From positions 240,989 to 304,988 of the forward strand of contig JAAFJN010000003.1 in NCBI GenBank assembly GCA_013298845.1: DNA of 64,000 nucleotides, read 5' to 3'. Shown here piece by piece: positions 6,143 to 64,000 of this stretch (position 1 is the stretch's first letter; every line of letters begins with the position of its first letter). The DNA is from Chitinophagales bacterium. Its GTDB lineage: Bacteria; Bacteroidota; Bacteroidia; Chitinophagales; Saprospiraceae. The position numbers and the translations under genes were made by a program. The notes beneath the pieces were generated by a model. It did no database searches. It saw nothing but the letters and a program-made list of their open reading frames with translations, and was not told the DNA's origin.

Positions 6143-7279
6143 CTACATTTTTACCAAATCCATCGAATAGTACGCCGAAATGCTGCGCAGCAGCACGCGT
6201 TCATTACAAAGCAAAGGGTTATCGCAGCGGCGGCGGTACAAGCCATCAAGATCCGTGATACCCATGTTAAATCGCACACCGATTTTGCCGTTCAAGTCCT
6301 TTTTTCCCAAGTTCATTTTGTACTGCACACCGCCCAGTAAACCAAAATCATTGCGTTTCAGGTCGGTGTTGGAGTTGAAAAGTTTGTTGCGGCTGGGTGG
6401 GGTAGCGGTACCGTTGAATCGGTTAGAAATCAAACGGCCGTAATATGGACCAACAAGCATCGAGAAACGTCCGTCGCGTTTGAAGGTAAACTCAGGAAAA
6501 ACGGATGCATTGAACCACACTGTTCGGTACGAGCCGTCGCGTCTGTACAACAGCGTATCGTCATAAAATTGCGACGTCACCGAAGAATATTTGCCCGTTA
6601 AACCAATTTCAACGTTCATGGATAAAAAACCGCCCCGGCCTTTAAACGCCGTTCCAATCCCAATTTCCCAACCCGGGCGTGCGCCAAAATCGGGGCCTTC
6701 CAAATCGCCGGTTTTTCCAAATTCCCGTTCTTTGATCAAAGAAGCCGCGTTTATACCCGCCCGCACCCGAAATTCGGTGGTGCTGGCGCTAAATTCCCGC
6801 TCAAAAACAAACTCACGGGTAACGGTACGGTTGTTTTTTTTGCCCTCGGTGGTTACCTGCAATTCGCGATTACCCAGCAATATGTACCGGATAGTTTGCG
6901 GGTCATCGTGAAGCGGATTGGAAAACACAAATTCGTCGCGCCAGGCTTCAATCAATTTATAATCAACGGGTTTGTTGGCGTTTTGTCCACGCACAGTGGC
7001 CGAATACACAATATTTGTATCGCGGAGGGTTAGTTTGAGGGTTTCCAACAATACGGAGTCGCCATCTTCCGGTTTAATCCGTACCGAGCGACCAGTCATG
7101 GTACTATCGTCTACTACTGTCCATATTTCAAGGCGATCACCCCGGTCCGTTGGCATAAACCAAACGCCTTTTATCGTTTTGAGGTCGTTAAATGCCCGTT
7201 CCGGGTTAAATTCTTGGGCCTTCATAACAAGAGGCGAGCATATGGCGCAAATCAGTGCGAGAATCCAGGTGTATTTCAT
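6143..7279 (-). CDS. Exported protein: DUF6265-like domain fused to an outer-membrane barrel
   Basis: A 378-residue exported protein. The start chosen, ATG at 7277-7279, gives a clear signal peptide (MKYTWILALICAICSPL, cleaved after MKAQ); the open frame to 7393 runs through the interspersed repeat and is not credible as coding. Residues about 25-160 resemble DUF6265 (IKGVWFMPTDRGD, then a WTVVDDSTMTGRS segment and FSNPLHDDPQTIRY). From about residue 170 the sequence alternates polar and hydrophobic residues with glycine/aromatic turns (VRAGINAASL, GWEIGIGTAF, LVGPYYGRL, LLGGVQYKMNLG), as in a PorT-like outer-membrane barrel. The function is unknown; a surface sensor or binding protein would fit. 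Likely cotranscribed with the small membrane protein downstream. Confidence 0.72.
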   Translation of the reverse strand: MKYTWILALICAICSPLVMKAQEFNPERAFNDLKTIKGVWFMPTDRGDRLEIWTVVDDSTMTGRSVRIKPEDGDSVLLETLKLTLRDTNIVYSATVRGQNANKPVDYKLIEAWRDEFVFSNPLHDDPQTIRYILLGNRELQVTTEGKKNNRTVTREFVFEREFSASTTEFRVRAGINAASLIKEREFGKTGDLEGPDFGARPGWEIGIGTAFKGRGGFLSMNVEIGLTGKYSSVTSQFYDDTLLYRRDGSYRTVWFNASVFPEFTFKRDGRFSMLVGPYYGRLISNRFNGTATPPSRNKLFNSNTDLKRNDFGLLGGVQYKMNLGKKDLNGKIGVRFNMGITDLDGLYRRRCDNPLLCNERVLLRSISAYYSMDLVKM

Positions 7280-7330: not shown

Positions 7331-7418
7331 TATACGGAGCGTCGCTTGGTTTTGTGCATAAAAGCCTTGAGGTGTACCTATAATGTGATGCACAAAACCT
7401 ACGTAGTCGAAGTATAAT
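7331..7418. repeat. Interspersed inverted-repeat element, copy 1 (centre flipped)
   Basis: An 88-bp element bounded by TTATAC and GTATAA, with an inner inverted repeat GGTTTTGTGCA / TGCACAAAACC around a 30-bp centre. Left arm contains GAGCGTCGCTT, right arm contains GTCGAAGTATA. Two more copies lie at 47617-47700 and 50904-50991. In this copy the centre is in the opposite orientation relative to the arms. It abuts the stop codon of the small ORF at 7421 and lies in the untranslated region between two minus-strand genes. Confidence 0.8.
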
Positions 7419-47616: not shown

Positions 47617-47700
47617 CTACTGAGCGTCGCTTGGTTTTGTGCATTACATTAGGGGTAGGTCCCAGGGTTTTTATGCACAAAACCTACGGAGTCGAAGTAT
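47617..47700. repeat. Interspersed inverted-repeat element, copy 2
   Basis: Same element as at 7331-7418 and 50904-50991: GAGCGTCGCTT, then GGTTTTGTGCA, a 30-bp centre with CATTA..GGGTA.GTCCCA..G, TGCACAAAACC and GGAGTCGAAGTAT. The outermost TTATAC is degraded (left end reads TTCTAC, right end GTATGAG). The centre has the same orientation relative to the arms as copy 3 and the opposite of copy 1. It lies between the small ORF and the convergent GH36-like gene. A possible open frame on the plus strand here reads through the element and is not coding. Confidence 0.8.
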
Positions 47701-50714: not shown

Positions 50715-51095
50715 GTTGTTGGTGTGTAATATTGGGCAAAAATGCGCAAGATCTTTTTAAAAATCAAACATTTGCCGAAAAAGCCGCTGAAAAGCAGCGA
50801 ACGGGGAATAAAGTGACTCTATCCTTATTGAACATTAGGGAGATTTTAGGTTAAAGTTATTTCAGTGTAAAAAAATGGTTTTACCTTAGCCATTCGAAAT
50901 TATTTATACGGAGCGTCGCTTGGTTTTGTGCACCACATTATGGGTACGTCCCAAGGCTTTTAGGCACAAAACTTACGGAGTCGAAGTATATAATCCTATT
51001 GTACCCGTTTTGGTCCCTGACTTCATTTAATCCAGATTTGTACATTTTCGTTGTCTGAAAGATAGCGTAAGGGTGTTTATTTTATCAAATTTACG
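50715..51095. other. Intergenic region between pepP and the first giant adhesin gene
   Basis: About 380 bases between divergent genes. It is A+T-rich, contains copy 3 of the interspersed repeat (50904-50991), and otherwise no gene I can support. The 75 bases before the adhesin ATG at 51096 hold no full -7 box match. Confidence 0.5.
50904..50991. repeat. Interspersed inverted-repeat element, copy 3
   Basis: 88 bases from TTATAC to the GTATAT end, with GAGCGTCGCTT on the left, GGTTTTGTGCA, a 30-bp centre (CATTATGGGTACGTCCCA...) and GCACAAAAC followed by GGAGTCGAAGTATA. Centre orientation equals that of copy 2. The centre itself can form a small GGG/CCC hairpin. Located between divergent promoters of pepP and the giant adhesin. 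Confidence 0.8.
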
Positions 51096-54000
51096 ATGTT
51101 GCTTTTTACTAAAAACGGTGCTCGCTTCGCGCGACTTGGTATTCTATTTTTCACTTTTTTGATCGCGTATACTAACGTTGTTTCGGCGCAAGGATGTGGC
51201 TGTACGAATTGCCCCCAGTTTATGCCCGATAACTTTGTTGGCTCCTTCTTTATCAACGTACAAAATGCCGATAACCCCACCTTAGGCCAAAATGGCCAGG
51301 GCGTGTGCGGGGTAACCATGAATATCAATCACGAATACATTGGTGATTTGTCCATTACCCTTACTTCGCCCTCGGGCCAGTCGGTAACGCTGGTCGGCCC
51401 CATTGGTTTGTTTGGTGAAACCGACGGTACCTCCTGGAATGTTGCCTTTGTGCCCTGTGGCGAAGCGGCGGACCCAGATCCGGGCTTCAGCAATACCTGG
51501 AACAACAACCAAGTCTGGGGTTTGGGTGGCTCTTATGGCGGTAGTTATTATCCCAGTTCCGGCTGCCTCGAAAATTTTAATTCCGGGCCGGTAAATGGCA
51601 CCTGGACCCTCACCGTTGTGGATGGCCAGGCCAGCGACGTGGGTAACTTCCTTGATTACGATATTATTTTTTGCGACCCAAGCGGCATTGATTGCTTTTC
51701 TTGCGCGGCCAACGCCGGTGAATTGCCACAACCCGACGTATCCGCTTGCGAGGGCAGCACCACCCTCGATCTGGAATTGCCACCTTCCTACGTGGCACCC
51801 AACGTAGCACCCCCTCCGGCGACGTACTCTTACACCTATGTTATTAGTGGACCGGGCGGCATTATCCTTGATTTTGATCCCAACGCCGATTTGAGTGCGT
51901 ATCCCACCGGAACTTATTCGGTGTGTGGTATGTCGTACCTCACGGCCCAGCAGGATTTATTGCCATCGCCCAACGGCAGCCTCACGGTGAACCAGTTGCG
52001 AACGCAGTTGAACTCCGGTACGGCTCCTTTTTGCGGGAAAATTACCAATAACTGCGTCAACGTAACCATCAACCCCGCACCCGAAGACCAGGAACTTTTT
52101 GTGGAATTGTGCGCGCCGCAATGTTACCTGTTTAATGGTATCAATCGGTGTGTTTCCGGGACTTATACGGCTAATTTATTGCAAAATGGCTGCCCTTACA
52201 CGGCTACTTTATACCTCACCGTAGGACAACCTAAATTTACCAATCTCACTGAATTTATTTGCAATGGCGGCTGCTCGGCTAATCCTTTGTTTCCCAATGC
52301 CTGCGCAACGGGTTCTTATCAGGAAGTATTACAAACTTCGCTGGGCTGCGATAGTACCATTAACCTGAACGTCAGTGTGATTTCGGCCAATGCTAATATT
52401 TCTAACCAACCCGTTATTCCTTGCGGCGGCGGGACGGTGCAATTATCCGGTGTGGGTTCCAGCACCGGCGGTTATTCGTACCTCTGGACGGCCTCTAACG
52501 GGGGCAATATTGTAGGCAGCCCCACCGCAATTAATGCCAATATTAACGCAGCGGGCGATTACCAACTGCGCGTTTGCCGCACGCAGGCCGGGGTTACTTG
52601 TTGCGATTCGGCTCAGGTAACCATCGAATCGGCAACGACCACGCCACCGGCCCCGGCCGGAATCAGCGGCTCAACAACCCTGTGTCAGGGGCAAACGCTG
52701 GATTATTTTATAACGCCGGTCAACGGTGCTTCTTCGTATACCTGGACAGTTCCTTCGGGGGTGACCATTAATTCCGGGGCAACGGGTGTATTAACCAATG
52801 TTACTTGGGCCAGTGCCACCGGCGGCCCCGTTTGTGTAACGGCCAACAACGGTTGCGGCCCCAGCGCTCCTATTTGCGTGAACGTTACCGTCGGTAGTGC
52901 GCCCACGGCCTCCGTGCCACAAGGCAATGCGACGGTGTGCGCAGCAAATACCACAACTTATACCATTCCGGCCGTGGCCAACGCGGCGGGTTATACCTGG
53001 ACGGTCACTGCCCCGGCCCAAATTGTATCCGGGCAGGGCACCAACACCATTCAGGTAACCTGGAACGGTGCAACTTCGGCCAATGTGTGCGTTACTACCA
53101 ATAACTCCTGCGGTACCAGTCCGCAACAGTGTCTGCCGGTAACCATTGGGGCCATCCCCGGGGTTCCGGTGATAACGGGTGCCAATACCGCCTGTACGCA
53201 GGCGACCGAAACATACTCAATTACACCCATTGCGGGGGCATCGTCTTATATCTGGACGGTAACGGGCGGGGTAATTGCCAGCGGACAAGGCACGGCATCG
53301 GTGCAAGTGACGTGGAACAACAACGCCACTTCCGGTACCTTGTGCGTCAAGTCCAGCAATAACTGTGGCGACAGCAACGATCAGTGTTTTAATGTCACAT
53401 TGAGCGCACCACCCGCGCAACCGGCCATTTCGGGCGAAAATACTTTGTGCCCCGGCGATACAGCCGTGTACACCTCCACAACGGTCGGCGGTGCTTTGGG
53501 TTACACCTGGACGGCCCCGGCGGGCGCGACCATTATCGCGGGACAAGGCTCTACCAGTGCCACCATCGTATTTGGCACCGCACCGGGCGGCAATGTATCC
53601 GTGGCGGTTAATGGCAATTGCGGTACGGCTCCTCAGGTTACTTTCCCGGTGACGGTGAATCCGTTCCCGGTAGCCAACGCCGGAATAGACATTGTTCAAT
53701 GCGGTAATGGTACGGCGTTGAATGCTTCCGGTTCGGGTGTTTGGTCGCAGTTAAACGGCCCGGCCCCGACGGTGTTTGCCAATAATAACGCGGCAAATTC
53801 GGGGGTAACAGTTTCTCAAACCGGCGTTTACAATTATATATGGCTGGTCAACGTGGCGGGTTGTGTTTCGACGGATACTGTGACGGTGAATTACGAATCC
53901 ATCCCGGCTGCCGGAGTGTTGAGTATCGTTTGTGATCAGGCCAACGAAAATTATACCGTATCGTTCCCCATTATCGGCGGTTTGGCACCCTTTACCGTTG

Positions 54001-57000
54001 CCGGTGGAACGGTCACCAACGGCGTATTTACCTCAACTCCAATTGTAAGTGGTACTCCGTATCAATTTACCATTGTGGATGCCAATAACTGCGTTAGTGT
54101 GCTCATTCAGGGTACCCAGAACTGTAATTGCTCCACCAACGCCGGAACCATGTCGCTAACCCCTTTGCAAGCCTGTGGTACCGCAACGGTTACGGCTGTA
54201 CAACAAACGCCACCCATTTTGGATGCCAATGACACCGGGGTTTTTGTATTGCACACCGGTTCAGGAAATACAATTGTTAACCCCGTTGCGCAAAATACAA
54301 CCGGGGTATTTGCTTTCCAAAGTGGTATGACCTACGGCCAAACGTATTATATTTCGTTTGTGGCGGGTAACAACGTAGCCGGATCTCCCTCGGCGTCCGA
54401 TCCGTGTTATTCCGTGGCGCAGGGGCAACCCGTAACGTTTTTTGCCATTCCGGTGGCCGATGCGGGAACCATTTTAGAAAATTGTGGTAATTCCATTACC
54501 CTCAACGCGACGGGATCGGGCACCTGGTCGGTCGTGAGCAGTCCCACCAACGGTAGTGTACAATTTACCAATAATAATGACCCCGTTTCGGAAGTAAGCA
54601 CCAGTGTTTTTGGTACTTACACGTTACAATGGACGGTTGCTGCTAATGGCTGTTCTTCGACGGATCAAACGGAAATTACTTTTAACCCCAATCCGGTGGT
54701 GAGTAGTATTGACCGGATTTGTGATCCCACGAACCAGTTTTTCTCCGTGATATTCGACCTCAGCAGCGGTACCGCACCTTATATAGTGGATGGTATAACT
54801 ATTGCCGGTACGGCTTATGTCAGCAGCCAGTTTGCGAGTGGTCAGTCGTATAACCTCACCGTTTCGGATAGTCGGGGCTGTACAACCACGTCCGTTGTGG
54901 GTTCTTACGCCTGTAACTGCGCCACCGATGCCGGAACCATGAGTAATGCACCATTGAAGGCTTGTGCCACGCAAACCGTCCAGGCGGCGGCCAATAACGA
55001 TGCAACGTTGGACGGCAACGATGTAGTGGCCTATATTCTCCACGATGCGCCCGGTACTATGGCGGGCGCTATTTTGGACCAAAATACCACGGGTGTTTTT
55101 GGGTTTGTTCCCGGTATGATATTGGGCCAAACTTATTATATTTCTCGAATTGCCGGTAATCCATTGGCAGGCTCCGTGGATCCCAACGACCCTTGTTTTA
55201 GTGTGTCGGCGGGTCAGGAAGTGGTATTTCTCGAAATTCCCGCCCCCGATGCCGGTCCCGATGTGGCGGTTTGTGGCAATGATGCGGCTTTGGACGGCGT
55301 TCCCGGCGGCTTCTCTGGTCAATGGAGTGTTGTGAGTGGACCGGGTACCGCCAGTATTGCTTCGCCACCGGCGCTGAATACCAACGTAGGTGTAACGCAG
55401 CCGGGAACCTATGTTTTCCGCTGGACGGCCACCAACGATATTTGCACCGGTTCGGATGAAGCAACGGTTGTTTTCCGGCCTTTGCCGCAGGCAGCGGTGG
55501 CCAGCGAAGATTGCAACAATACCAATACCCAATACCAGATTACCGTTAACGTAAGCGGCGGTACGGCACCTTATATCGTGAATGGCGTTGCCGGAACCTT
55601 TGCCGGAACCGTATTCACTTCGGGATTTGTGACCAATAATACCTCGTATTCATTTACGGTCACGGACGCTTTGGGATGCACTTTTGGCCCGGTAACGGGT
55701 CTCGAAAACTGCAACTGTGCCACCGACGCTGGTTCGATGAGTACCGCGCCGTTGACATTTTGCGCCGACCAACCCGCCGTGGGTGTTTGGGATAATAATG
55801 CCCAATTGGACGGCAACGATACCTTGCGGTTTGTGTTGCACAGCGCGGCCGGGTTGACTTTGGGGCAAATTTTTGCCACCTCCAATACCCCGGAATTTAA
55901 TTTTACGAACAGTTTGACCTTGGGGCAGACCTATTATATATCGGCCATTGCCGGGGATAATTTGAACGGAAACGTTGATCCCAACGATCCTTGTTTTTCC
56001 GTTACCGCCGGTACACCGGTGCAGTGGAAAGCCTTACCGACGGCAACATTGGCGGGAACAACCACCATTTGCGTTGGCGGTACAGCGCAATTGGTGCTGA
56101 ACGGTACGGGCCAATATCCGCTCACGGTGTCGTGGACCGATAACAGTGGCCAAACCCAAAGCGCGGCAATTACCAGCGCGCAGGGTGCCCAGGTTAATGT
56201 CGCTCCCGGCAGTACAACCGTGTACACCTTAACCGGCGTCACTGATGGCGGGCTTCCGGTGTGTGCCAACCAGGCTACGGGCAGCGCAACCATCACGGTA
56301 AATCAGCCGGTAGAAGCCGGTACGGCCCTCGCCGCCCTTGAGTTCTGCGTAGGTACACCCGATGTTGTGGCCTTGTCCGATTTATTAACGGGTGAAAGTG
56401 CGGGCGGTATATGGACCGAAACTTCGTCGGCTCCTTCGGCCGGTGGTGCCTTTAATGCCGGTGCCGGAACGTTTGCGGTGGTGAATCAGGTGCCGGGACT
56501 GTACCAGTTTTTGTACAAAGTAACGCCGTTGGCACCTTGCCCGGCGGCAGAAGCCTCGGTTTCGGTACAGATTCGCCCCGAACCCACCGCTAACGCCGGA
56601 CCAGATAAAGTTATTGATTGTGATACGCCAACGGCCATATTGGGCAATAGTGGGGCCGGATTGGGTCTGACCTACGTTTGGTCGCTCAACGGCGCACCGC
56701 TGACCAATGCCGGGCAAAACCTGTTGGAGGCCAACGCCGGTGGGGTATATACATTATTGGTGACCAATGTATTTGGGTGTACCAGTTCGGACGAAACCAC
56801 GGTGACTACCCAACTGGAGGCGCCGGTATTTGAGCAGGTCGCCAAAACCAATATTTCCTGTTTTGGGGAAAGAGATGGTTTTATCGAAATAAAAAATGTT
56901 ACGGGTGGCACCCCGCCCTATTTGTATTCTTTTAACGGTGGCGCATTTAGCAGCACTACCAAATATGGGCCGTTGTCTGGCGGGTCTTATTCCATCGAAG

Positions 57001-57605
57001 TGAGTGATGCCAACGGTTGCACAACGGTGTCGGATGTGCTTGAGATTGTGGAGCCAGCCCAACTTATTGCGCAGTTAGGCCCCGATATTTTGGTGAAATT
57101 GGGCGATAGTGCAAGTGTTACTTTACAATTGGGCGCAAATACCGATTGGGGGAGCATTGACACCATCGTTTGGAATCCACTATTGGATACAGCGGGGGTA
57201 GGGCAGCCTCACCAAATATTTTTCCCGACCCAGCACTCGGCCATTCAGGTTTTGGTGCGGGATACCAGTGGTTGCAGTGCCGAAGACCGGCTGGAGTTTA
57301 GGGTTGATCGCCGCCGTAATATTTACGTTCCAAATATTTTTTACCCGGCAGGCAGCGAAAATAACATTGCCATAATCTTTGGAGGGAACGACGTTGCGGA
57401 AATTAAATATTTTCAAATTTTCGACCGGTGGGGAGCGATGGTGCATGAAACAACCAATTTCCAACCGGGAGATTTGTCGAAAGGCTGGAATGGCACCGTA
57501 GGAAATCAACCGGCACAACCGGCAGTTTTTGTTTGGGTGGCGGCAGTTTTGTTTAAAGACGGACTTACAGAGTTATTTAGTGGCGATGTTACAGTGACGA
57601 AATAA
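51096..57605 (+). CDS. Giant modular surface protein with P-domain, PKD-like and SprB repeats and CHU_C sorting domain
   Basis: A 2,169-residue secreted protein. Signal peptide (GILFFTFLIAYTNVVSAQ). Residues about 40-200: a proprotein-convertase P-domain (VQNADNPTLG, ISLTLTSPSGQSVTLVGP-like strand, GGSYGGSYYPSSG, NGTWTLTVVDGQASDVG). About 520-855: four PKD/Ig-like repeats of about 83 residues, each with SYTWTV/I and N-x-C-G. About 1,008-1,640: three copies of a module of about 264 residues (CNCATDAGTM ... DGND/NDTG ... GQTYYIS.IAGN). A repeat of SprB type (NISCFGERDGFIEI, about 1,918) precedes the CHU_C domain (NIYVPNIFYPAG, IFDRWGAMVHET, from about 2,072). It is a T9SS type B cargo, probably an adhesin or surface filament component. 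A paralogue follows directly. Confidence 0.88.
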   Translation: MLLFTKNGARFARLGILFFTFLIAYTNVVSAQGCGCTNCPQFMPDNFVGSFFINVQNADNPTLGQNGQGVCGVTMNINHEYIGDLSITLTSPSGQSVTLVGPIGLFGETDGTSWNVAFVPCGEAADPDPGFSNTWNNNQVWGLGGSYGGSYYPSSGCLENFNSGPVNGTWTLTVVDGQASDVGNFLDYDIIFCDPSGIDCFSCAANAGELPQPDVSACEGSTTLDLELPPSYVAPNVAPPPATYSYTYVISGPGGIILDFDPNADLSAYPTGTYSVCGMSYLTAQQDLLPSPNGSLTVNQLRTQLNSGTAPFCGKITNNCVNVTINPAPEDQELFVELCAPQCYLFNGINRCVSGTYTANLLQNGCPYTATLYLTVGQPKFTNLTEFICNGGCSANPLFPNACATGSYQEVLQTSLGCDSTINLNVSVISANANISNQPVIPCGGGTVQLSGVGSSTGGYSYLWTASNGGNIVGSPTAINANINAAGDYQLRVCRTQAGVTCCDSAQVTIESATTTPPAPAGISGSTTLCQGQTLDYFITPVNGASSYTWTVPSGVTINSGATGVLTNVTWASATGGPVCVTANNGCGPSAPICVNVTVGSAPTASVPQGNATVCAANTTTYTIPAVANAAGYTWTVTAPAQIVSGQGTNTIQVTWNGATSANVCVTTNNSCGTSPQQCLPVTIGAIPGVPVITGANTACTQATETYSITPIAGASSYIWTVTGGVIASGQGTASVQVTWNNNATSGTLCVKSSNNCGDSNDQCFNVTLSAPPAQPAISGENTLCPGDTAVYTSTTVGGALGYTWTAPAGATIIAGQGSTSATIVFGTAPGGNVSVAVNGNCGTAPQVTFPVTVNPFPVANAGIDIVQCGNGTALNASGSGVWSQLNGPAPTVFANNNAANSGVTVSQTGVYNYIWLVNVAGCVSTDTVTVNYESIPAAGVLSIVCDQANENYTVSFPIIGGLAPFTVAGGTVTNGVFTSTPIVSGTPYQFTIVDANNCVSVLIQGTQNCNCSTNAGTMSLTPLQACGTATVTAVQQTPPILDANDTGVFVLHTGSGNTIVNPVAQNTTGVFAFQSGMTYGQTYYISFVAGNNVAGSPSASDPCYSVAQGQPVTFFAIPVADAGTILENCGNSITLNATGSGTWSVVSSPTNGSVQFTNNNDPVSEVSTSVFGTYTLQWTVAANGCSSTDQTEITFNPNPVVSSIDRICDPTNQFFSVIFDLSSGTAPYIVDGITIAGTAYVSSQFASGQSYNLTVSDSRGCTTTSVVGSYACNCATDAGTMSNAPLKACATQTVQAAANNDATLDGNDVVAYILHDAPGTMAGAILDQNTTGVFGFVPGMILGQTYYISRIAGNPLAGSVDPNDPCFSVSAGQEVVFLEIPAPDAGPDVAVCGNDAALDGVPGGFSGQWSVVSGPGTASIASPPALNTNVGVTQPGTYVFRWTATNDICTGSDEATVVFRPLPQAAVASEDCNNTNTQYQITVNVSGGTAPYIVNGVAGTFAGTVFTSGFVTNNTSYSFTVTDALGCTFGPVTGLENCNCATDAGSMSTAPLTFCADQPAVGVWDNNAQLDGNDTLRFVLHSAAGLTLGQIFATSNTPEFNFTNSLTLGQTYYISAIAGDNLNGNVDPNDPCFSVTAGTPVQWKALPTATLAGTTTICVGGTAQLVLNGTGQYPLTVSWTDNSGQTQSAAITSAQGAQVNVAPGSTTVYTLTGVTDGGLPVCANQATGSATITVNQPVEAGTALAALEFCVGTPDVVALSDLLTGESAGGIWTETSSAPSAGGAFNAGAGTFAVVNQVPGLYQFLYKVTPLAPCPAAEASVSVQIRPEPTANAGPDKVIDCDTPTAILGNSGAGLGLTYVWSLNGAPLTNAGQNLLEANAGGVYTLLVTNVFGCTSSDETTVTTQLEAPVFEQVAKTNISCFGERDGFIEIKNVTGGTPPYLYSFNGGAFSSTTKYGPLSGGSYSIEVSDANGCTTVSDVLEIVEPAQLIAQLGPDILVKLGDSASVTLQLGANTDWGSIDTIVWNPLLDTAGVGQPHQIFFPTQHSAIQVLVRDTSGCSAEDRLEFRVDRRRNIYVPNIFYPAGSENNIAIIFGGNDVAEIKYFQIFDRWGAMVHETTNFQPGDLSKGWNGTVGNQPAQPAVFVWVAAVLFKDGLTELFSGDVTVTK

Positions 57606-57672: not shown

Positions 57673-57876
57673 TTGTTGAAAATTCTCTTATCCAAGCCCT
57701 TAGTTATATAAAAATATTAAATGTAGAATACGATACTGAAATCAAACCGAAACATCTTTTTTTTGCACCCTTCAATCGATCTATCCCGTAACCAAAGAAG
57801 AAAAATATCTTCAATTTAATCCAAACTTCTTTTAAAAAGGCCAATGGCCAAATTTACTATTTTGCTAAAACTACGG

Positions 57877-60800
57877 ATGTTTATGTCAAAAAAACTACTC
57901 CTTTTTTGCGCATTACTTGTTTCTTCTTTTGCAGTAATGGCGCAAGTGCCCATTCCGGAACCTTGCGAGCCGCCCGGAACTACCGTTCCGGCCGAAGACT
58001 GTCAAAGTGCTTGTATTAACTGCGATTTTAACGGTTATATGGGTAACTCCGGCGGCTGGGCTGGTAATCCACCGCCACAAGGTTGGTGTAGCCAGATTCA
58101 AAATGACCTTTGGTTAGGCTTTATTGCGGGTGCTGGTGGTGCTACCTTTACCATTACCCCCAGCAACTGCGCCAATGGTGATGGTTTGCAAGCCGCTGTA
58201 TATCCAGCCGGTTGTAACGATGATCCGCTCGGTTGTAATGCAGGTTGCCAAGGATGCGGTACGACACCGGTGTCTTTTTCGGTTTCGTTAACACCGGGTA
58301 GCAATTATTACCTCATTATTGATGGTTTTTCGCAAGATGCTTGTGATTTTACGATTTCGGTTGTTCCTCCCATTGCGGTAGAAGCCCAACCTTTGGGTTT
58401 GACCGGCCAAATTGCCGGACCGGCAACTGGTTGTCCGGGTGGTACCGCTACTTATACATTACCCAACGTATCCAACGCCGGTTTTTACACGTGGTCTAGC
58501 CCAACACCAGGAGTACTGTTTAACGGTGTTGAAGGTCCGGTTACTTTTGAAGCACCCGGTGGCCGTATTGTTCAGGTAACCTATCCTGCGAACGTAACGG
58601 GTAATATTACAATTTGTGTGGATCCATCGAACTCTTGTTTTACGGGTACACAACGTTGCCGTACGATCAATATTCAACCAAAACCACCAACCAATCTGCC
58701 AAAAGCAGTAGTTTGTTACGAAGACACTCCTTACACGTTACCTTGGGGCGACGAAGCCAACGCTACGGGTAACTATACCACTACATTAACATCGTTTCAA
58801 GGTTGCGACAGTATCATCAATCAAATGGTACAAGTATTGCCACAAAAGGTTACAAACCAAACCCGTTACGTATGTACCGGCGATTGTTTTACGGTTTGTG
58901 GTGAAGAGTATTGCGATCAGGGTTTGCACGTAAGTATGTGCGAATCATTCCAAGGTTGTGATAGTACGGTCAATCTTACCTTGAACGTATTGGCACCCAT
59001 TGCCCAAATTTTGGGTAATCCGGTCTTGTCTTGTTCAAATACATCAGTGACCTTGACCTCGGTTCCGTCCCCAAATTTTCCGGGAGCGAGTATTAAAATC
59101 TGGCGTTCACTGCCCAGTAATACTGTTATCGCCAACGGCGAAACCTGCGTTATTACCCAGCCGGGTACTTATTACCTCACCACAACCATGAGTGCGGGTA
59201 GTATCCAGTGCGTATCGCGGGATACTATTGTGGTAACGGGGAATACTGTTCCACCTACCGCAACGGGGGTGAATGGTGTCATTGGCTGTGTTTCAGGACC
59301 AGTTCAGATTGGCGTAACAACCAATGCCGCAAATCCAACTTTCCAGTGGAGCGGTAATAACTTTACATCTACCCAGCAGTCGCCATTTGTATCGGCTGGT
59401 GGTACGTATACCGTTGTAGTAACGGATAATGTAACGGGTTGTTCTCAAACCGCAGTTGCCACGGTGGCAGGAAATACCACACCACCAGTTGCCAGTGCTA
59501 CGGGGGCTTTGTTGAATTGTACGAATCCAACCCAAACCGTTTCTGCTACTTCTAATGTACCGTCTTCTTTTGCATGGAGCGGCCCTGCATCGGGGACCGG
59601 ACCATCGTTGAACGTTTCCGCACCCGGCGTTTATGTCGTAACCGTAACCGCCAATTCCAATGGCTGTACATCGGTTACTTCGGCTACGGTAACCACTGAC
59701 TTTGCAACGCCCGGCGCACTTGCCGGTGCCGGTGGAACAATTTCTTGCCCAACGCCAGTCATTACCCTCAATGGTAGTTCACCCGCCAGTAACGTTTCGT
59801 ACGCCTGGAGTGCCGGTGTAACGGGGACCGGAGCAAGCGTTACCGCCAGTGTGGCCGGTACGTACACCGTAACGGTTACCGGTACAAACGGTTGTACCAG
59901 TTCGGCAACGGTTACCTTAAATGGTGACACTAACCTCCCGAACGCCGCCGCAACGGGCGTTACTTTGAGTTGTAATTCACCCAGCCAGCAAGTAAACGCA
60001 ACCTCTTCTACGCCGAACGTAACGTTTGCGTGGACAGTAGGCTCCAATACGATTAACAGTAATACCGCAATAGTAACCAATCCTGGTACCTACACCGTTA
60101 CAGTGACGGCAGTAAACGGTTGTACTTCTACCGCAAATGCTTTGGTGAATGGCGACTTTGCCGCACCAAACGCTTCGGCTACGGGTGCTACTATCAATTG
60201 TGGGGTGAATACGGTTTCGTTGTCCGGTAACTCAACAACGCCCGGCGTAACTTATTCCTGGGTAGGTCCCGGCGGTACACCTTATACCGGTCAAAACCCG
60301 GCGGTAAGTGTAGTTGGTGATTATACCCTGGTGGTAACATCCACTAATGGTTGTACCACAACGGCAGTGGCTACGGTAGTTCCGGATGCCAACATTCCAA
60401 ACGCTACAGCAGTGGGTGATACCATCAACTGTTTGAGCGCCAGTGCTATGATCTCGGGTAATTCTACTACCCCCGGCGTAAACTTCACCTGGACGTTTGG
60501 CGGGGTTCCATTGCCCAACCCAACCAACGCGACCCAAGCGGTATCGCAGAATGGTCTTTACACGCTTACAGTATCCAACCCGGCCAATGGCTGTACCGCT
60601 ATTGCAACGGCTTTTGTAACCCTGGACACCGATGCACCGGGCGCAGCAACGCAGGGCGCTACACTTACCTGTTCTTCTTCAAGTCTCGATTTAACGGCGA
60701 CCTCTCCAACGAATAACGTTTCATACACCTGGACGGGTAATGTGAATAATCAAATTTTAAATGTTACAGCCGCCGGAACTTATACGGTGACGGTGACTGC

Positions 60801-63800
60801 GGCCAATGGCTGTACTTCAACTGCATCGGCGGTAGTTGCAGCCGATCAGGGCATTCCGGTGCTTTCAACCGCTGCTTCAACCTTGACCTGCGCTACTCAG
60901 GTGGTTACCATCAATACGACTTCTTCGTTGCCGGTAGGTTTCTCTTGGAGTGGTCCGGTTGGTTTCGCAACGACCACGGATGAAGATCCACAAGTAACGC
61001 TTCCCGGTAACTACACCGTATTGGCTACGGCTTCCAACGGCTGTTCGGCTACCGCAACGATTACCGTTAACCAGGATATTGCAGCCCCTAACGCAACGGC
61101 TACGGGTGGTGTATTGACTTGCGCTACTACTGCGTTGTCGTTGTCATCTGGCTCAGCAACACCAGGTGCTATATTTTCCTGGCCTGCTTTGAATACCAGC
61201 AACCAAAATCCGGTAGTTAGTGTCATCGGTACTTATGTGGTTCAGGTAACGGGTACCAACGGTTGTACCAGCACCGCCGCCGCTACGGTAACCAACAACA
61301 TTGAAAAAGCCGATATTGATATTGCCATTCCGACGGAATTGACGTGTGCAACACTGACTTCGGATTTACAAACAACCATTACTGCGGTAAACAATACTGT
61401 ACAAAGCATCGCGTGGTCCACCAATGACACGGCGGAAGACATTACGGTATCGGCCCCCGGTACGTACACGGTAACCGTTACCTTGAGCAACGGTTGCACC
61501 GAATCGGCAGTGGTATCCGTAACGCAAGATATTGTGCCTCCGGCGGTTACGGCTACGGGCGGCACCTTGAGTTGCACATTGCCTTCCATTAGTATTAGTG
61601 GTTCTTCTTCGACCCAGGGTGCTACTATTGCCTGGTCGAATGGTTTGCCCGCTACCACTAACCCAACGGTTTCAACGGCCGGTACCTATACCATTACGGC
61701 TACGGGCACCAATGGTTGTACTTCAACTGCATCGGTATTGGTAGGTATTGACACCATTGCGCCTGGTGCGGCTATCGTTTCCAGCAATATTATTACCTGT
61801 AACGATCAGGAATCAACCCTGACTGCCAACACAACGTCTGGTGTGTCTTATGCATGGTCGGGTCCGGGTGTACTTAATGCGGCTACTCCGAGTGTTACGG
61901 CGCTTACCGCCGGTAGTTACGTGGTGACTACAACGGCGAATAACGGTTGTACATCGGTGGCTACATTCAATCAAACTTCCGATTTGACTCCTCCTGACGT
62001 TTCGGCGACCGGTGGTACCATTGATTGTATTTCGGGCGCCGCCCAAATTGTTGGTTCATCCGTGACCACGGGTGCAACTTACGAGTGGAGTGGTCCAAAT
62101 CAGTTTAGTTCATCTAACCCAACCCCCACTGTATTGGAAGCCGGTATTTACCAACTTACGGTAACTGCGTTGAATGGTTGTACCAGTTCTGCCACAACCG
62201 AAGTATTGGAAAATACCCTTTCGCCCAACGCAGATATTGACAACTCCATGACGCAATTGACGTGTGCTGTCACCGCAATTGATCTTACGGGTACAACCAC
62301 TACGGCCAATACATCCATTGAATGGACGTTGCCCGGCGGCACTAACAGCACCAACGCGACTATTTCGGCCGTGGTTCCTGGTCAGTACGCGTTTGCGGTA
62401 ACTTCCAACGATAACGGTTGTGTAACGATCCAAACTATTACATTATCACAGAATATCACACCTCCCGGCAACTTGCAGGCCGATGGCGGTACATTGGATT
62501 GCAGCAACCCAACGATTGCTTTGTCAGGTGGTTCTAACGTAACCAATGCAACGTATTTGTGGACGGGTCCCGGTGGTGAAACCTATCCGGTACAAAACCC
62601 CAATATTGCGTCGTCCGGTACTTATACTTTGGTGGTGACCAACCCGGCCAACGGTTGTACGGCATCTACCAGTGCTACCGTTGCATCCAGCACCGATTTG
62701 CCCGAAATTACCGTGGTCGCCGATATTCTTACTTGTTTTGAACCAGAAACAGTATTGGATGCCCAAACCAACGTAACGAACGCCGAATTTACCTGGAACG
62801 GCCCCCAGTCGTTTACGTCTACTTTGTCGGATCCAACAACACCTACGCCCGGTAGTTATACCGTCGTGGTGCGCAACCCCGACAATGGCTGTACTTCAAC
62901 CTTTGCTATTGATGTTGTAGAGGATAAAGTAACGCCGAACGTTTCGGTTCAAAATGCACAAATTACCTGCCAACAGCCAAGTATTGCGCTGCAAGGTAAT
63001 TCTACAACGGCAAGTGTAACCTATCTCTGGACGGCACCTGGTGGCGAAACTTATCCTGTGCCGTCGCCAACCGTAAGCCAGCCCGGTAACTACGTATTGG
63101 TAGTGACCAACACCGTGAATGGTTGTACTTCCAGCGCAACCGCCAATGTAGCACCTGACCAAAACGTACCGGTAGTGTCTGTAACCGGTGGCGAAATTAC
63201 TTGTAGAATTGATACGATTCAGTTGACGGGTGCTGTTAACAAACCCGATGTGACTTGGTCTTGGTCTGGTCCAGGTAACTTTACCTCACAACAGCAGAAT
63301 CCAAACATTTACGTGGCTGGTACGTACACGTTGGTAGTAACTACTCCCGTGAACGGTTGTACCGGTCAAGCCTCGATTGTGGTAACGGAAGATGTGGTAA
63401 CGCCCGTAGTAAACGTGGCTAACCCTGATCAGTTGGATTGCTCAACTACGCAAGTGAACCTCCAGGCGTCAGTGGCGGCTGCCGGTACTTACACTTTTGA
63501 GTGGTCTTCAACGGCCGGTACCATCCTCGCCGGTGCTACTTCGGCTACTCCAACGGTGAGTCAGGCGGCTATTTACACTTTGATTGTGACCAATACCGAT
63601 AACGGTTGTACCTCAACCCGCGACGTAGAAGTACTGGTAGATCCTGCCATTCCATCGGCTATTTTAACGGCTCCTGACGGCGTATCCTGCTACGGCTTCA
63701 CGGATGGCTCGGTGGCTATTCAAGGGGTAACCGGTGGTACTACGCCATTTGTATTCTCCATTGATAACCAGCCATTTATTGCGGCGGCGGCGTTTAATAA

Positions 63801-64000
63801 CCTGCCTCCCGGCATTCACTCTTTAAAGGTACAGGATGCTAATGGTTGCGAATTTGAAACAACGTTTGAAGTAACCGAGCCCGCCGAATTGTTGGTAAAC
63901 CTCGGCCCGGATACAACGATTCGCCTCGGTGATGAAATTCAAATTAACGTTGACAGTTCTAACGTTACGAATTTCGCCAGCATCGAAACAACCAGCCTGA
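57877..64000 (+). CDS. Giant T9SS-type surface protein with 19 Ig/HYR-like repeats (partial, runs off window)
   Basis: The frame is open from ATG at 57877 to the end of the window (2,041 codons) without a stop. Signal peptide KKLLLFCALLVSSFAVMAQ. Residues about 60-170 form a PPC-like beta domain (NDLWLGFIAGAGGATFTITP), then Cys-rich segments (GCDSIINQMV, GCDSTVNLTLNV). From about residue 458 to 1,928 are 19 repeats of 73-82 residues, each with a Cys in the first strand (L-x-C) and a second in the ending N-G-C-T, presumably a disulfide, and a Y-x-W strand between. A SprB-type repeat follows (VSCYGFTDGSVAIQGV) and then LGPDTTIRLGDEI, as in the first giant gene just before its CHU_C domain, so a CHU_C domain is expected beyond the window. 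Probably an adhesin exported by T9SS. Confidence 0.88.
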   Translation, partial: MFMSKKLLLFCALLVSSFAVMAQVPIPEPCEPPGTTVPAEDCQSACINCDFNGYMGNSGGWAGNPPPQGWCSQIQNDLWLGFIAGAGGATFTITPSNCANGDGLQAAVYPAGCNDDPLGCNAGCQGCGTTPVSFSVSLTPGSNYYLIIDGFSQDACDFTISVVPPIAVEAQPLGLTGQIAGPATGCPGGTATYTLPNVSNAGFYTWSSPTPGVLFNGVEGPVTFEAPGGRIVQVTYPANVTGNITICVDPSNSCFTGTQRCRTINIQPKPPTNLPKAVVCYEDTPYTLPWGDEANATGNYTTTLTSFQGCDSIINQMVQVLPQKVTNQTRYVCTGDCFTVCGEEYCDQGLHVSMCESFQGCDSTVNLTLNVLAPIAQILGNPVLSCSNTSVTLTSVPSPNFPGASIKIWRSLPSNTVIANGETCVITQPGTYYLTTTMSAGSIQCVSRDTIVVTGNTVPPTATGVNGVIGCVSGPVQIGVTTNAANPTFQWSGNNFTSTQQSPFVSAGGTYTVVVTDNVTGCSQTAVATVAGNTTPPVASATGALLNCTNPTQTVSATSNVPSSFAWSGPASGTGPSLNVSAPGVYVVTVTANSNGCTSVTSATVTTDFATPGALAGAGGTISCPTPVITLNGSSPASNVSYAWSAGVTGTGASVTASVAGTYTVTVTGTNGCTSSATVTLNGDTNLPNAAATGVTLSCNSPSQQVNATSSTPNVTFAWTVGSNTINSNTAIVTNPGTYTVTVTAVNGCTSTANALVNGDFAAPNASATGATINCGVNTVSLSGNSTTPGVTYSWVGPGGTPYTGQNPAVSVVGDYTLVVTSTNGCTTTAVATVVPDANIPNATAVGDTINCLSASAMISGNSTTPGVNFTWTFGGVPLPNPTNATQAVSQNGLYTLTVSNPANGCTAIATAFVTLDTDAPGAATQGATLTCSSSSLDLTATSPTNNVSYTWTGNVNNQILNVTAAGTYTVTVTAANGCTSTASAVVAADQGIPVLSTAASTLTCATQVVTINTTSSLPVGFSWSGPVGFATTTDEDPQVTLPGNYTVLATASNGCSATATITVNQDIAAPNATATGGVLTCATTALSLSSGSATPGAIFSWPALNTSNQNPVVSVIGTYVVQVTGTNGCTSTAAATVTNNIEKADIDIAIPTELTCATLTSDLQTTITAVNNTVQSIAWSTNDTAEDITVSAPGTYTVTVTLSNGCTESAVVSVTQDIVPPAVTATGGTLSCTLPSISISGSSSTQGATIAWSNGLPATTNPTVSTAGTYTITATGTNGCTSTASVLVGIDTIAPGAAIVSSNIITCNDQESTLTANTTSGVSYAWSGPGVLNAATPSVTALTAGSYVVTTTANNGCTSVATFNQTSDLTPPDVSATGGTIDCISGAAQIVGSSVTTGATYEWSGPNQFSSSNPTPTVLEAGIYQLTVTALNGCTSSATTEVLENTLSPNADIDNSMTQLTCAVTAIDLTGTTTTANTSIEWTLPGGTNSTNATISAVVPGQYAFAVTSNDNGCVTIQTITLSQNITPPGNLQADGGTLDCSNPTIALSGGSNVTNATYLWTGPGGETYPVQNPNIASSGTYTLVVTNPANGCTASTSATVASSTDLPEITVVADILTCFEPETVLDAQTNVTNAEFTWNGPQSFTSTLSDPTTPTPGSYTVVVRNPDNGCTSTFAIDVVEDKVTPNVSVQNAQITCQQPSIALQGNSTTASVTYLWTAPGGETYPVPSPTVSQPGNYVLVVTNTVNGCTSSATANVAPDQNVPVVSVTGGEITCRIDTIQLTGAVNKPDVTWSWSGPGNFTSQQQNPNIYVAGTYTLVVTTPVNGCTGQASIVVTEDVVTPVVNVANPDQLDCSTTQVNLQASVAAAGTYTFEWSSTAGTILAGATSATPTVSQAAIYTLIVTNTDNGCTSTRDVEVLVDPAIPSAILTAPDGVSCYGFTDGSVAIQGVTGGTTPFVFSIDNQPFIAAAAFNNLPPGIHSLKVQDANGCEFETTFEVTEPAELLVNLGPDTTIRLGDEIQINVDSSNVTNFASIETTSL

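What the first reader, a model, noticed from the sequence alone, without database searches (positions are those of the whole stretch)
7331..7418. Interspersed inverted-repeat element whose centre is flipped in one of three copies
All three copies on the plus strand have GAGCGTCGCTT on the left and GTCGAAGTAT on the right. In copies 2 and 3 the 30-bp centre reads CATTA..GGGTA.GTCCC..GG.TTTTA, but in copy 1 the centre reads in reverse complement between the same arms. The centre is bracketed by a perfect 11-bp inverted repeat (GGTTTTGTGCA/TGCACAAAACC), so exchange between these arms would invert it. I know of no described element with this design.
Basis: seen in the sequence. Interest (0 to 1): 0.75.

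Follow-up and report, generated by a model that had tools for sequence, protein, structure and literature searches.

The report
One flipped loop in hairpin repeats
A short hairpin-forming repeat scattered through this bacterial genome has, in one copy, had the stretch between its two mirror-image arms turned round, most likely by a known kind of copying slip, so it looks like a real but ordinary rearrangement and not a working switch.

Summary
Window 7332-7415 is one copy of an 84-nt hairpin repeat: outer arm, 11-bp inner arm, 30-nt centre, inner arm, outer arm. Its centre is reverse-complemented relative to its arms. Of 77 places found in the genome, 61 could be scored for centre orientation; 60 are canonical and only this one is inverted. 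In a related species, 31 of 31 scored copies are canonical (3 more unscored). The nearest copy is the same by outer arms (31 of 32 identical) and by reversed centre: window 50906-50989. So this is one family with one inversion, not two families. The 60:1 skew argues against a freely working switch; slow or rare flipping is not excluded. Perfect arms 30 nt apart, paired changes in the arms across copies and shortened centres in other copies point to template switching at a hairpin. That gives "inverted-repeat spacer inversion", which is already described (PMC8604942, passages). The repeat family was not seen in the papers listed by my searches. No transposase carrying its ends was found. Interest is low to moderate.

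The parts
7332..7415 (+). Whole repeat, copy 1, with inverted centre
   Evidence: CM match 65.6 bits for the full element; the core alone (model positions 17-68) also matches on the opposite strand at 43.5 bits
7332..7347 (+). Left outer arm, canonical orientation
   Evidence: Outer arms together 31 of 32 identical to copy 3
7348..7358 (+). Left inner arm GGTTTTGTGCA
   Evidence: Exact match; perfect complement of 7389-7399
7359..7388 (-). Inverted 30-nt centre, reads canonically on the minus strand
   Evidence: Orientation score: only negative value among 61 scored copies; best reverse-complement match is copy 3
7389..7399 (+). Right inner arm TGCACAAAACC
7400..7415 (+). Right outer arm TACGTAGTCGAAGTAT, canonical orientation
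47617..47700 (+). Copy 2, canonical centre (47644-47673), perfect 11-bp inner arms
50906..50989 (+). Copy 3, canonical centre (50933-50962), 9 of 11 inner-arm pairs; closest relative of copy 1

Best explanation
The feature is one copy of a dispersed, non-coding, hairpin-forming repeat (probably a small non-autonomous mobile element) in an uncultured Bacteroidota genome. In the lineage of this copy, after it parted from the copy at window 50906-50989, the 30-nt centre was inverted. The likely mechanism is as follows. When the locus was single-stranded during replication, the 11-12-bp arms could pair. The growing strand, while in one arm, switched to the complementary arm, copied the loop from the wrong strand and switched back, leaving arms and flanks unchanged and the loop reversed. 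Shown: the inverted centre, its limits within the inner arms, its uniqueness among 61 scored copies, and that outer arms and reversed centre have the same nearest canonical copy. Inferred: the template-switch step, the number of flips (one by parsimony), whether it came before or after insertion here, and the mobility of the repeat.
For: 60 of 61 scored copies are canonical and 1 is inverted; 31 of 31 scored copies in related species G003 are canonical. The nearest copy by outer arms (31 of 32) and by reversed centre (score 20.0, control maximum 10.5) is the same one. Inner arms of copy 1 are 11 of 11 complementary, a class that holds 11 of the 61 copies. Across 85 aligned copies, 13 of 17 stem pairs have at least one change on both sides (8 of the 11 inner pairs), against a shuffled mean of 4.3, with 0 of 500 shuffles reaching 13, as arm homogenisation or pairing constraint predicts. 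12 of the 77 places have centres under 20 nt, as deletion at hairpins would give. Copy 1 folds as single-stranded DNA with z -3.16 and -3.55 on its two strands. Flanks of copy 1 and of copies 3, 2 and two others (L042, L038, L040, L037) show no similarity beyond shuffles, so these are separate insertions. Spacer inversion by template switching is described in yeast: ten events, arms longer than 9 bp, in nine of ten genes with arms already perfect (PMC8604942, passages). Template switching at quasipalindromes is documented in E. coli (PMC7202029, abstract and opening of the introduction).
Against: No sister strain with the uninverted state at this very locus was available; in G003 the bases printed upstream of the orthologous gene show a different neighbour and that contig has no model match. 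The yeast spacer inversions changed only 2 to 5 bases, while this loop is 30 nt. Copy 3, its closest relative, has imperfect arms and folds less well (z -1.62, 13 of 200 shuffles at least as good). The paired changes could equally reflect selection on the hairpin; related sequences inflate the shuffle test, and slid versions of the structure still give 6 to 10 pairs changed on both sides, with a covariation score of up to 0.080 against 0.098. No clear target-site duplication proves mobility.
Confidence: 0.8

Rival explanations
1. A phase-variable switch: a site-specific recombinase acts on the arms and flips the centre back and forth.
For: Perfect inverted repeats bracket the flipped segment, and copy 1 lies 52 bp upstream of the putative start codon at 7279 of the minus-strand gene. 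In yeast, spacer inversions are reported to recur and to revert (PMC8604942, passages), so slow two-way flipping, without a recombinase, is possible.
Against: 1 of 61 inverted; if each copy were equally likely to be in either state the chance of at most 1 is 2.7e-17, and 0.006 for the 11 perfect-arm copies alone. 0 of 31 scored copies in G003. A 30-bp spacer is very short for pairing two duplex sites (general knowledge, not tested). No recombinase search was run.
Confidence: 0.04
2. The flip happened during transposition, when the element was a folded single strand or hairpin intermediate, rather than during ordinary replication.
For: The repeat looks like a mobile hairpin: unrelated flanks in the five copies compared and a long imperfect hairpin structure.
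Against: No transposase with these ends was found in the searches made. No other inverted copy among 61 scored, although they represent many insertions.
Confidence: 0.1
3. Two independent repeat families that share arms, one with the centre in each orientation.
For: None found beyond the orientation itself.
Against: The inverted type has one member among 61 scored, and its outer arms and reversed centre share the same nearest canonical copy.
Confidence: 0.01
4. An assembly artefact of the hairpin.
For: The genome is a draft in 89 contigs and reads were not available.
Against: The centre has point differences from its nearest copy, so it is not a misplaced piece of a known copy, and 84 nt fits within one short read (inference).
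Confidence: 0.05

Closest known systems
Inverted-repeat spacer inversion by polymerase template switching (PMC8604942; passages seen)
   Same: Complete inversion of the loop between short perfect arms, arms unchanged
   Different: Here in a bacterial non-coding repeat with a 30-nt loop; the described yeast events changed 2 to 5 bases within genes and some recurred
Quasipalindrome template-switch mutation in E. coli (PMC7202029; abstract and opening of the introduction seen)
   Same: Replication stalls at an imperfect inverted repeat and switches template; arms become more perfect
   Different: The described outcome is arm correction, not loop inversion
Hairpin-associated small inversions of chloroplast non-coding DNA (search listing only; the rest recalled)
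   Same: Small loop flanked by inverted repeats found in either orientation
   Different: Organelle DNA; recalled to be often recurrent, whereas here 1 of 61 scored copies
GTAG and CGTC REP elements (PMC3733652; passages seen)
   Same: Dispersed palindromic repeats in many copies; CGTC-type are reported from Bacteroidetes among others and without a dedicated transposase
   Different: CGTC stems are 8-9 bp with 4-5-nt loops; here an 11-bp inner stem, about 30-nt centre and distinct outer arms
Bacterial MITEs such as RUP and NEMIS (named in PMC3733652 passages)
   Same: 70-300 bp with 15-30-bp terminal inverted repeats and no coding capacity, as that paper defines them
   Different: No matching insertion sequence found and no clear target-site duplication

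Membership tests
IR spacer inversion by template switching | Loop inverted between short complementary arms with arms and outer sequence unchanged | tested here: met
   By comparison with the nearest paralogous copy
IR spacer inversion by template switching | Perfect arms of about 10 bp or more | tested here: met
   11 of 11 pairs
IR spacer inversion by template switching | Ancestral orientation seen at the same locus in a close relative | tested here: inconclusive
   Only paralogous copies show it; no model match on the G003 contig that bears the orthologous gene
CGTC REP | 8-9-bp stem and 4-5-nt loop | tested here: not met
   11-bp inner stem and about 30-nt centre (definition from passages)
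RAYT-mobilised REP | The repeat flanks a RAYT gene in the genome | tested here: not met
   Around six Y1_Tnp matches no inner arm with up to 1 mismatch, only scattered single outer-arm-like matches; of the five scanned for flanking inverted repeats four carry other repeats and one (L032) nothing above shuffles; L036 was not scanned for them
MITE | Terminal inverted repeats, no coding capacity, many copies, unrelated flanks | tested here: met
   77 places, shared layout, flanks of copy 1 compared with four other copies
MITE | Target-site duplication | tested here: inconclusive
   80 length-and-offset tests gave z up to 2.9, none clear; a TA duplication cannot be told from the conserved ATAC/GTAT ends
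MITE | A parent insertion sequence with the same ends | tested here: inconclusive
   The 42 left-arm sites all fall, by my coordinate check, in places matched over model positions 1-84; 18 isolated exact inner-arm sites have no exact opposing partner within the 4-5 kb fetched; the genome is a draft
Site-specific invertible switch | Both orientations common | tested here: not met
   1 of 61 and 0 of 31 scored copies
Site-specific invertible switch | A recombinase acting on the arms | not tested
   No recombinase search was run

The most novel reading that the evidence does not exclude
The repeat is a mobile DNA hairpin moved as a single strand, and its loop can flip at the moment of insertion (a bacterial counterpart of flip-flop terminal hairpins), so that inverted loops mark individual insertion events.
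Probability: 0.07. Interest if true: 0.55.

Novelty: new member of a known kind. Interest (0 to 1): 0.27.

Why it matters
It gives a clean natural example, in a bacterium, of a complete 30-nt loop inversion between 11-bp arms. Because the repeat is present in dozens of copies, the share of flipped copies can be read from the genome: 1 of 61 scored copies here. It also brings to notice a hairpin-repeat family in this genus with unknown means of spread.

Tried and rejected
A RAYT as the mover: around six Y1_Tnp matches there is no inner arm with up to 1 mismatch, only scattered single matches to outer-arm words. Four of the five scanned have flanking inverted repeats of other sequence; the fifth (L032) scored below the shuffle maximum; the sixth (L036) was not scanned this way.

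An insertion sequence with the same ends: 18 isolated exact inner-arm sites were picked from the capped list (where the exact matches come first) and fetched; none had an exact opposing partner within the 4-5 kb taken. Two of them (L216, L218) look by eye like decayed copies.

Target-site duplications: none clear in 71 own-genome and 34 G003 copies; 80 tests, z up to 2.9.

Further inverted copies: three other places gave opposite-strand core matches of 27.5 to 30.6 bits (C34:43365, C78:4408, C5:55224), but all three score canonical (L071 +3.2, L081 +2.8, L076 +7.3). The other 12 opposite-strand rows, apart from copy 1 itself, match over positions 1-84, as a near-palindrome does.

Orthologous site: the gene beside copy 1 has a match in all 25 genomes (own included), but only the closest (G003) was read upstream, by eye; it has a different neighbour there and no model match on that contig. 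A second attempt beside copy 2 met a contig end on the side that mattered and was not informative.

Rfam: no match in the window at gathering thresholds. Viral contigs: no exact match to the left-arm pattern.

Rows dropped before counts: of 93 model rows 16 are the opposite strand of a place already listed, leaving 77 places. Of these 4 had no parseable arms, 12 had centres under 20 nt and 61 were scored. Of 34 G003 copies at E up to 1e-4, 3 had no parseable arms (canonical by eye) and 31 were scored. The model search scored 150 of 3481 first-look candidates, so 77 may be a lower bound. The model R1 was built from 22 canonical copies, which may lower its reach for inverted ones; copy 1, not in the model, still ranked 40th of 93 rows, and the 42 left-arm sites, found without regard to the centre, add no further inverted copy. 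Alignment A2 used 85 of the 111 copies held (77 + 34): 54 own and 31 G003 of 80-86 nt, with seven named weak ones left out.

Literature: (the last for the letters of the arms) listed no paper whose title or abstract start describes this repeat family; several lists were capped (for example 12 of 95, 10 of 649, 15 of 36), and the library lacks most subscription papers. No paper was read whole.

Full report
What is there. Window 7332-7415 is an 84-nt repeat laid out as outer arm (16 nt), inner arm GGTTTTGTGCA, 30-nt centre, inner arm TGCACAAAACC, outer arm (16 nt). Two further copies lie in the window at 47617-47700 and 50906-50989. The window is part of a 6.37-Mb draft genome in 89 contigs. A search with the 22-nt left arm found 42 places with up to 3 mismatches and 0 with the pattern read backwards. 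A covariance model built from 22 canonical copies (copy 1 not included) gave 93 rows, which are 77 distinct places once opposite-strand rows are removed. A genome of its genus, G003, shares contig lengths with a public MAG titled "Chitinophagales bacterium" (JAAFHO01), so I take the window to be from an uncultured Bacteroidota.

The inversion. Each centre was scored forward and in reverse complement against all others. Of 77 places, 4 could not be parsed and 12 have centres under 20 nt. Of the 61 scored, 60 are canonical and one, copy 1, is inverted, with an orientation score of -7.1 while the others lie between +2.1 and +12.1. Its best reverse-complement score is 20.0; 1000 shuffles reach at most 10.0 and the reverse complements of other centres at most 10.5. 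In G003, the closest relative by the gene beside copy 1 (73% identity), 34 copies were fetched; the 31 that could be scored are all canonical.

One family. Ranked by outer arms alone, the nearest copy to copy 1 is the one at 50906-50989 (31 of 32 identical); ranked by the reversed centre it is the same copy. With the centre read in reverse the two agree at 76 of 84 positions, as it stands at 63 of 84; the five differences within the centre are all transitions. The 300-nt flanks of copy 1 and of four other copies, this one included, are no more alike than shuffles, so they are separate insertions. By parsimony the centre turned round in the lineage of copy 1 after the two parted; whether before or after its insertion here is not known.

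Not a free switch. If both orientations were equally likely, the chance of at most 1 inverted in 61 would be 2.7e-17; for the 11 copies with perfect inner arms, where flipping should be easiest, it is 0.006. Rare or slow flipping is not excluded, and the yeast work reports spacer inversions that recur and revert (PMC8604942, passages). No reads were available and no recombinase search was run.

Mechanism. The inner arms of copy 1 pair perfectly and it folds as single-stranded DNA with z-scores of -3.16 and -3.55 on its two strands; three of the four other sequences folded gave -2.80 to -3.17, but copy 3 only -1.62. On an alignment of 85 copies (54 own, 31 G003), 90.7% of stem cells pair and 13 of 17 pairs have at least one change on both sides against a shuffled mean of 4.3, with 0 of 500 shuffles reaching it. 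Relatedness inflates such counts; slid versions reach 6 to 10 pairs and a covariation score of up to 0.080 against 0.098, so the excess is moderate. It is what arm homogenisation or selection on pairing would leave. Twelve of 77 places have centres under 20 nt; in one (L113) the two arms overlap as GGTTTTGTGCACAAAACC. Perfect arms, a flipped loop, homogenised arms and lost loops are all expected from replication through a hairpin. Template switching between short inverted repeats is reported to produce "IR spacer inversion": ten events in yeast coding sequence, on arms longer than 9 bp, in nine of ten genes with arms already perfect, with changes of 2 to 5 bases (PMC8604942, passages). Template switching at such repeats is documented in E. 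coli (PMC7202029, abstract and opening of the introduction). I therefore commit to this mechanism; the step itself is inferred.

What the repeat is. It is dispersed, bounded by conserved TTTATAC and GTATA ends in the 71 copies profiled and mostly between genes (9 of 77 fall inside a roughly called ORF). It has the form of a MITE, but no clear target-site duplication was seen and no insertion sequence with these ends was found. It is not a CGTC REP by stem and loop size (definition from PMC3733652 passages). Around the six Y1_Tnp genes of the genome there is no inner arm of this repeat with up to 1 mismatch; four of the five scanned carry other inverted repeats. With the model, 7 of 40 genomes searched, own included, had a match at E up to 1e-4, all within the 25 of the same genus and none among the 15 of other families. 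With an exact pattern, 4 of 42 genomes of the genus, own included, had one. Related hairpins with the same inner-arm core but other outer arms and centres occur in G007, G009 and G021, and in G008 and G023.

Verdict. The inference of an inversion between the arms is right; the suggestion of a new invertible design is not supported. The repeat family was not seen in the papers listed by ten searches (titles and abstract starts, some lists capped), and the inversion is a good bacterial example of a known process.

Noticed in passing
L115-L117, L121, L166-L168 (G007, G009, G021) and L118, L119 (G023, G008): Related hairpin families with inner arms that mostly read GTTTTGTGC/GCACAAAAC (L117 has paired changes) but different outer arms (ATACCTCGCGC or ATACGCCG) and different centres, the first about 115 nt with a long central palindrome: a modular superfamily that keeps its inner stem.
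   Followed up: partly
77 places of the own genome: By rough ORF calls the repeat sits 22 times between divergent genes and 4 times between convergent genes, of 77; gap lengths were not controlled for.
   Followed up: partly
L113 (G000:C34:43153-43202): A copy with the whole centre lost so that the arms overlap as a perfect palindrome; another copy (L071, C34:43349-43431) lies about 150 bp away.
   Followed up: no
L031, L033, L034, L035: RAYT-like genes are flanked by what look like three different repeat types, so several REP-like families may coexist in this genome.
   Followed up: no
window 51096-57605 and 57844-63999: Two giant neighbouring open frames; the first has PKD-like, proprotein convertase P and SprB repeat domains, the second runs off the window.
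   Followed up: no
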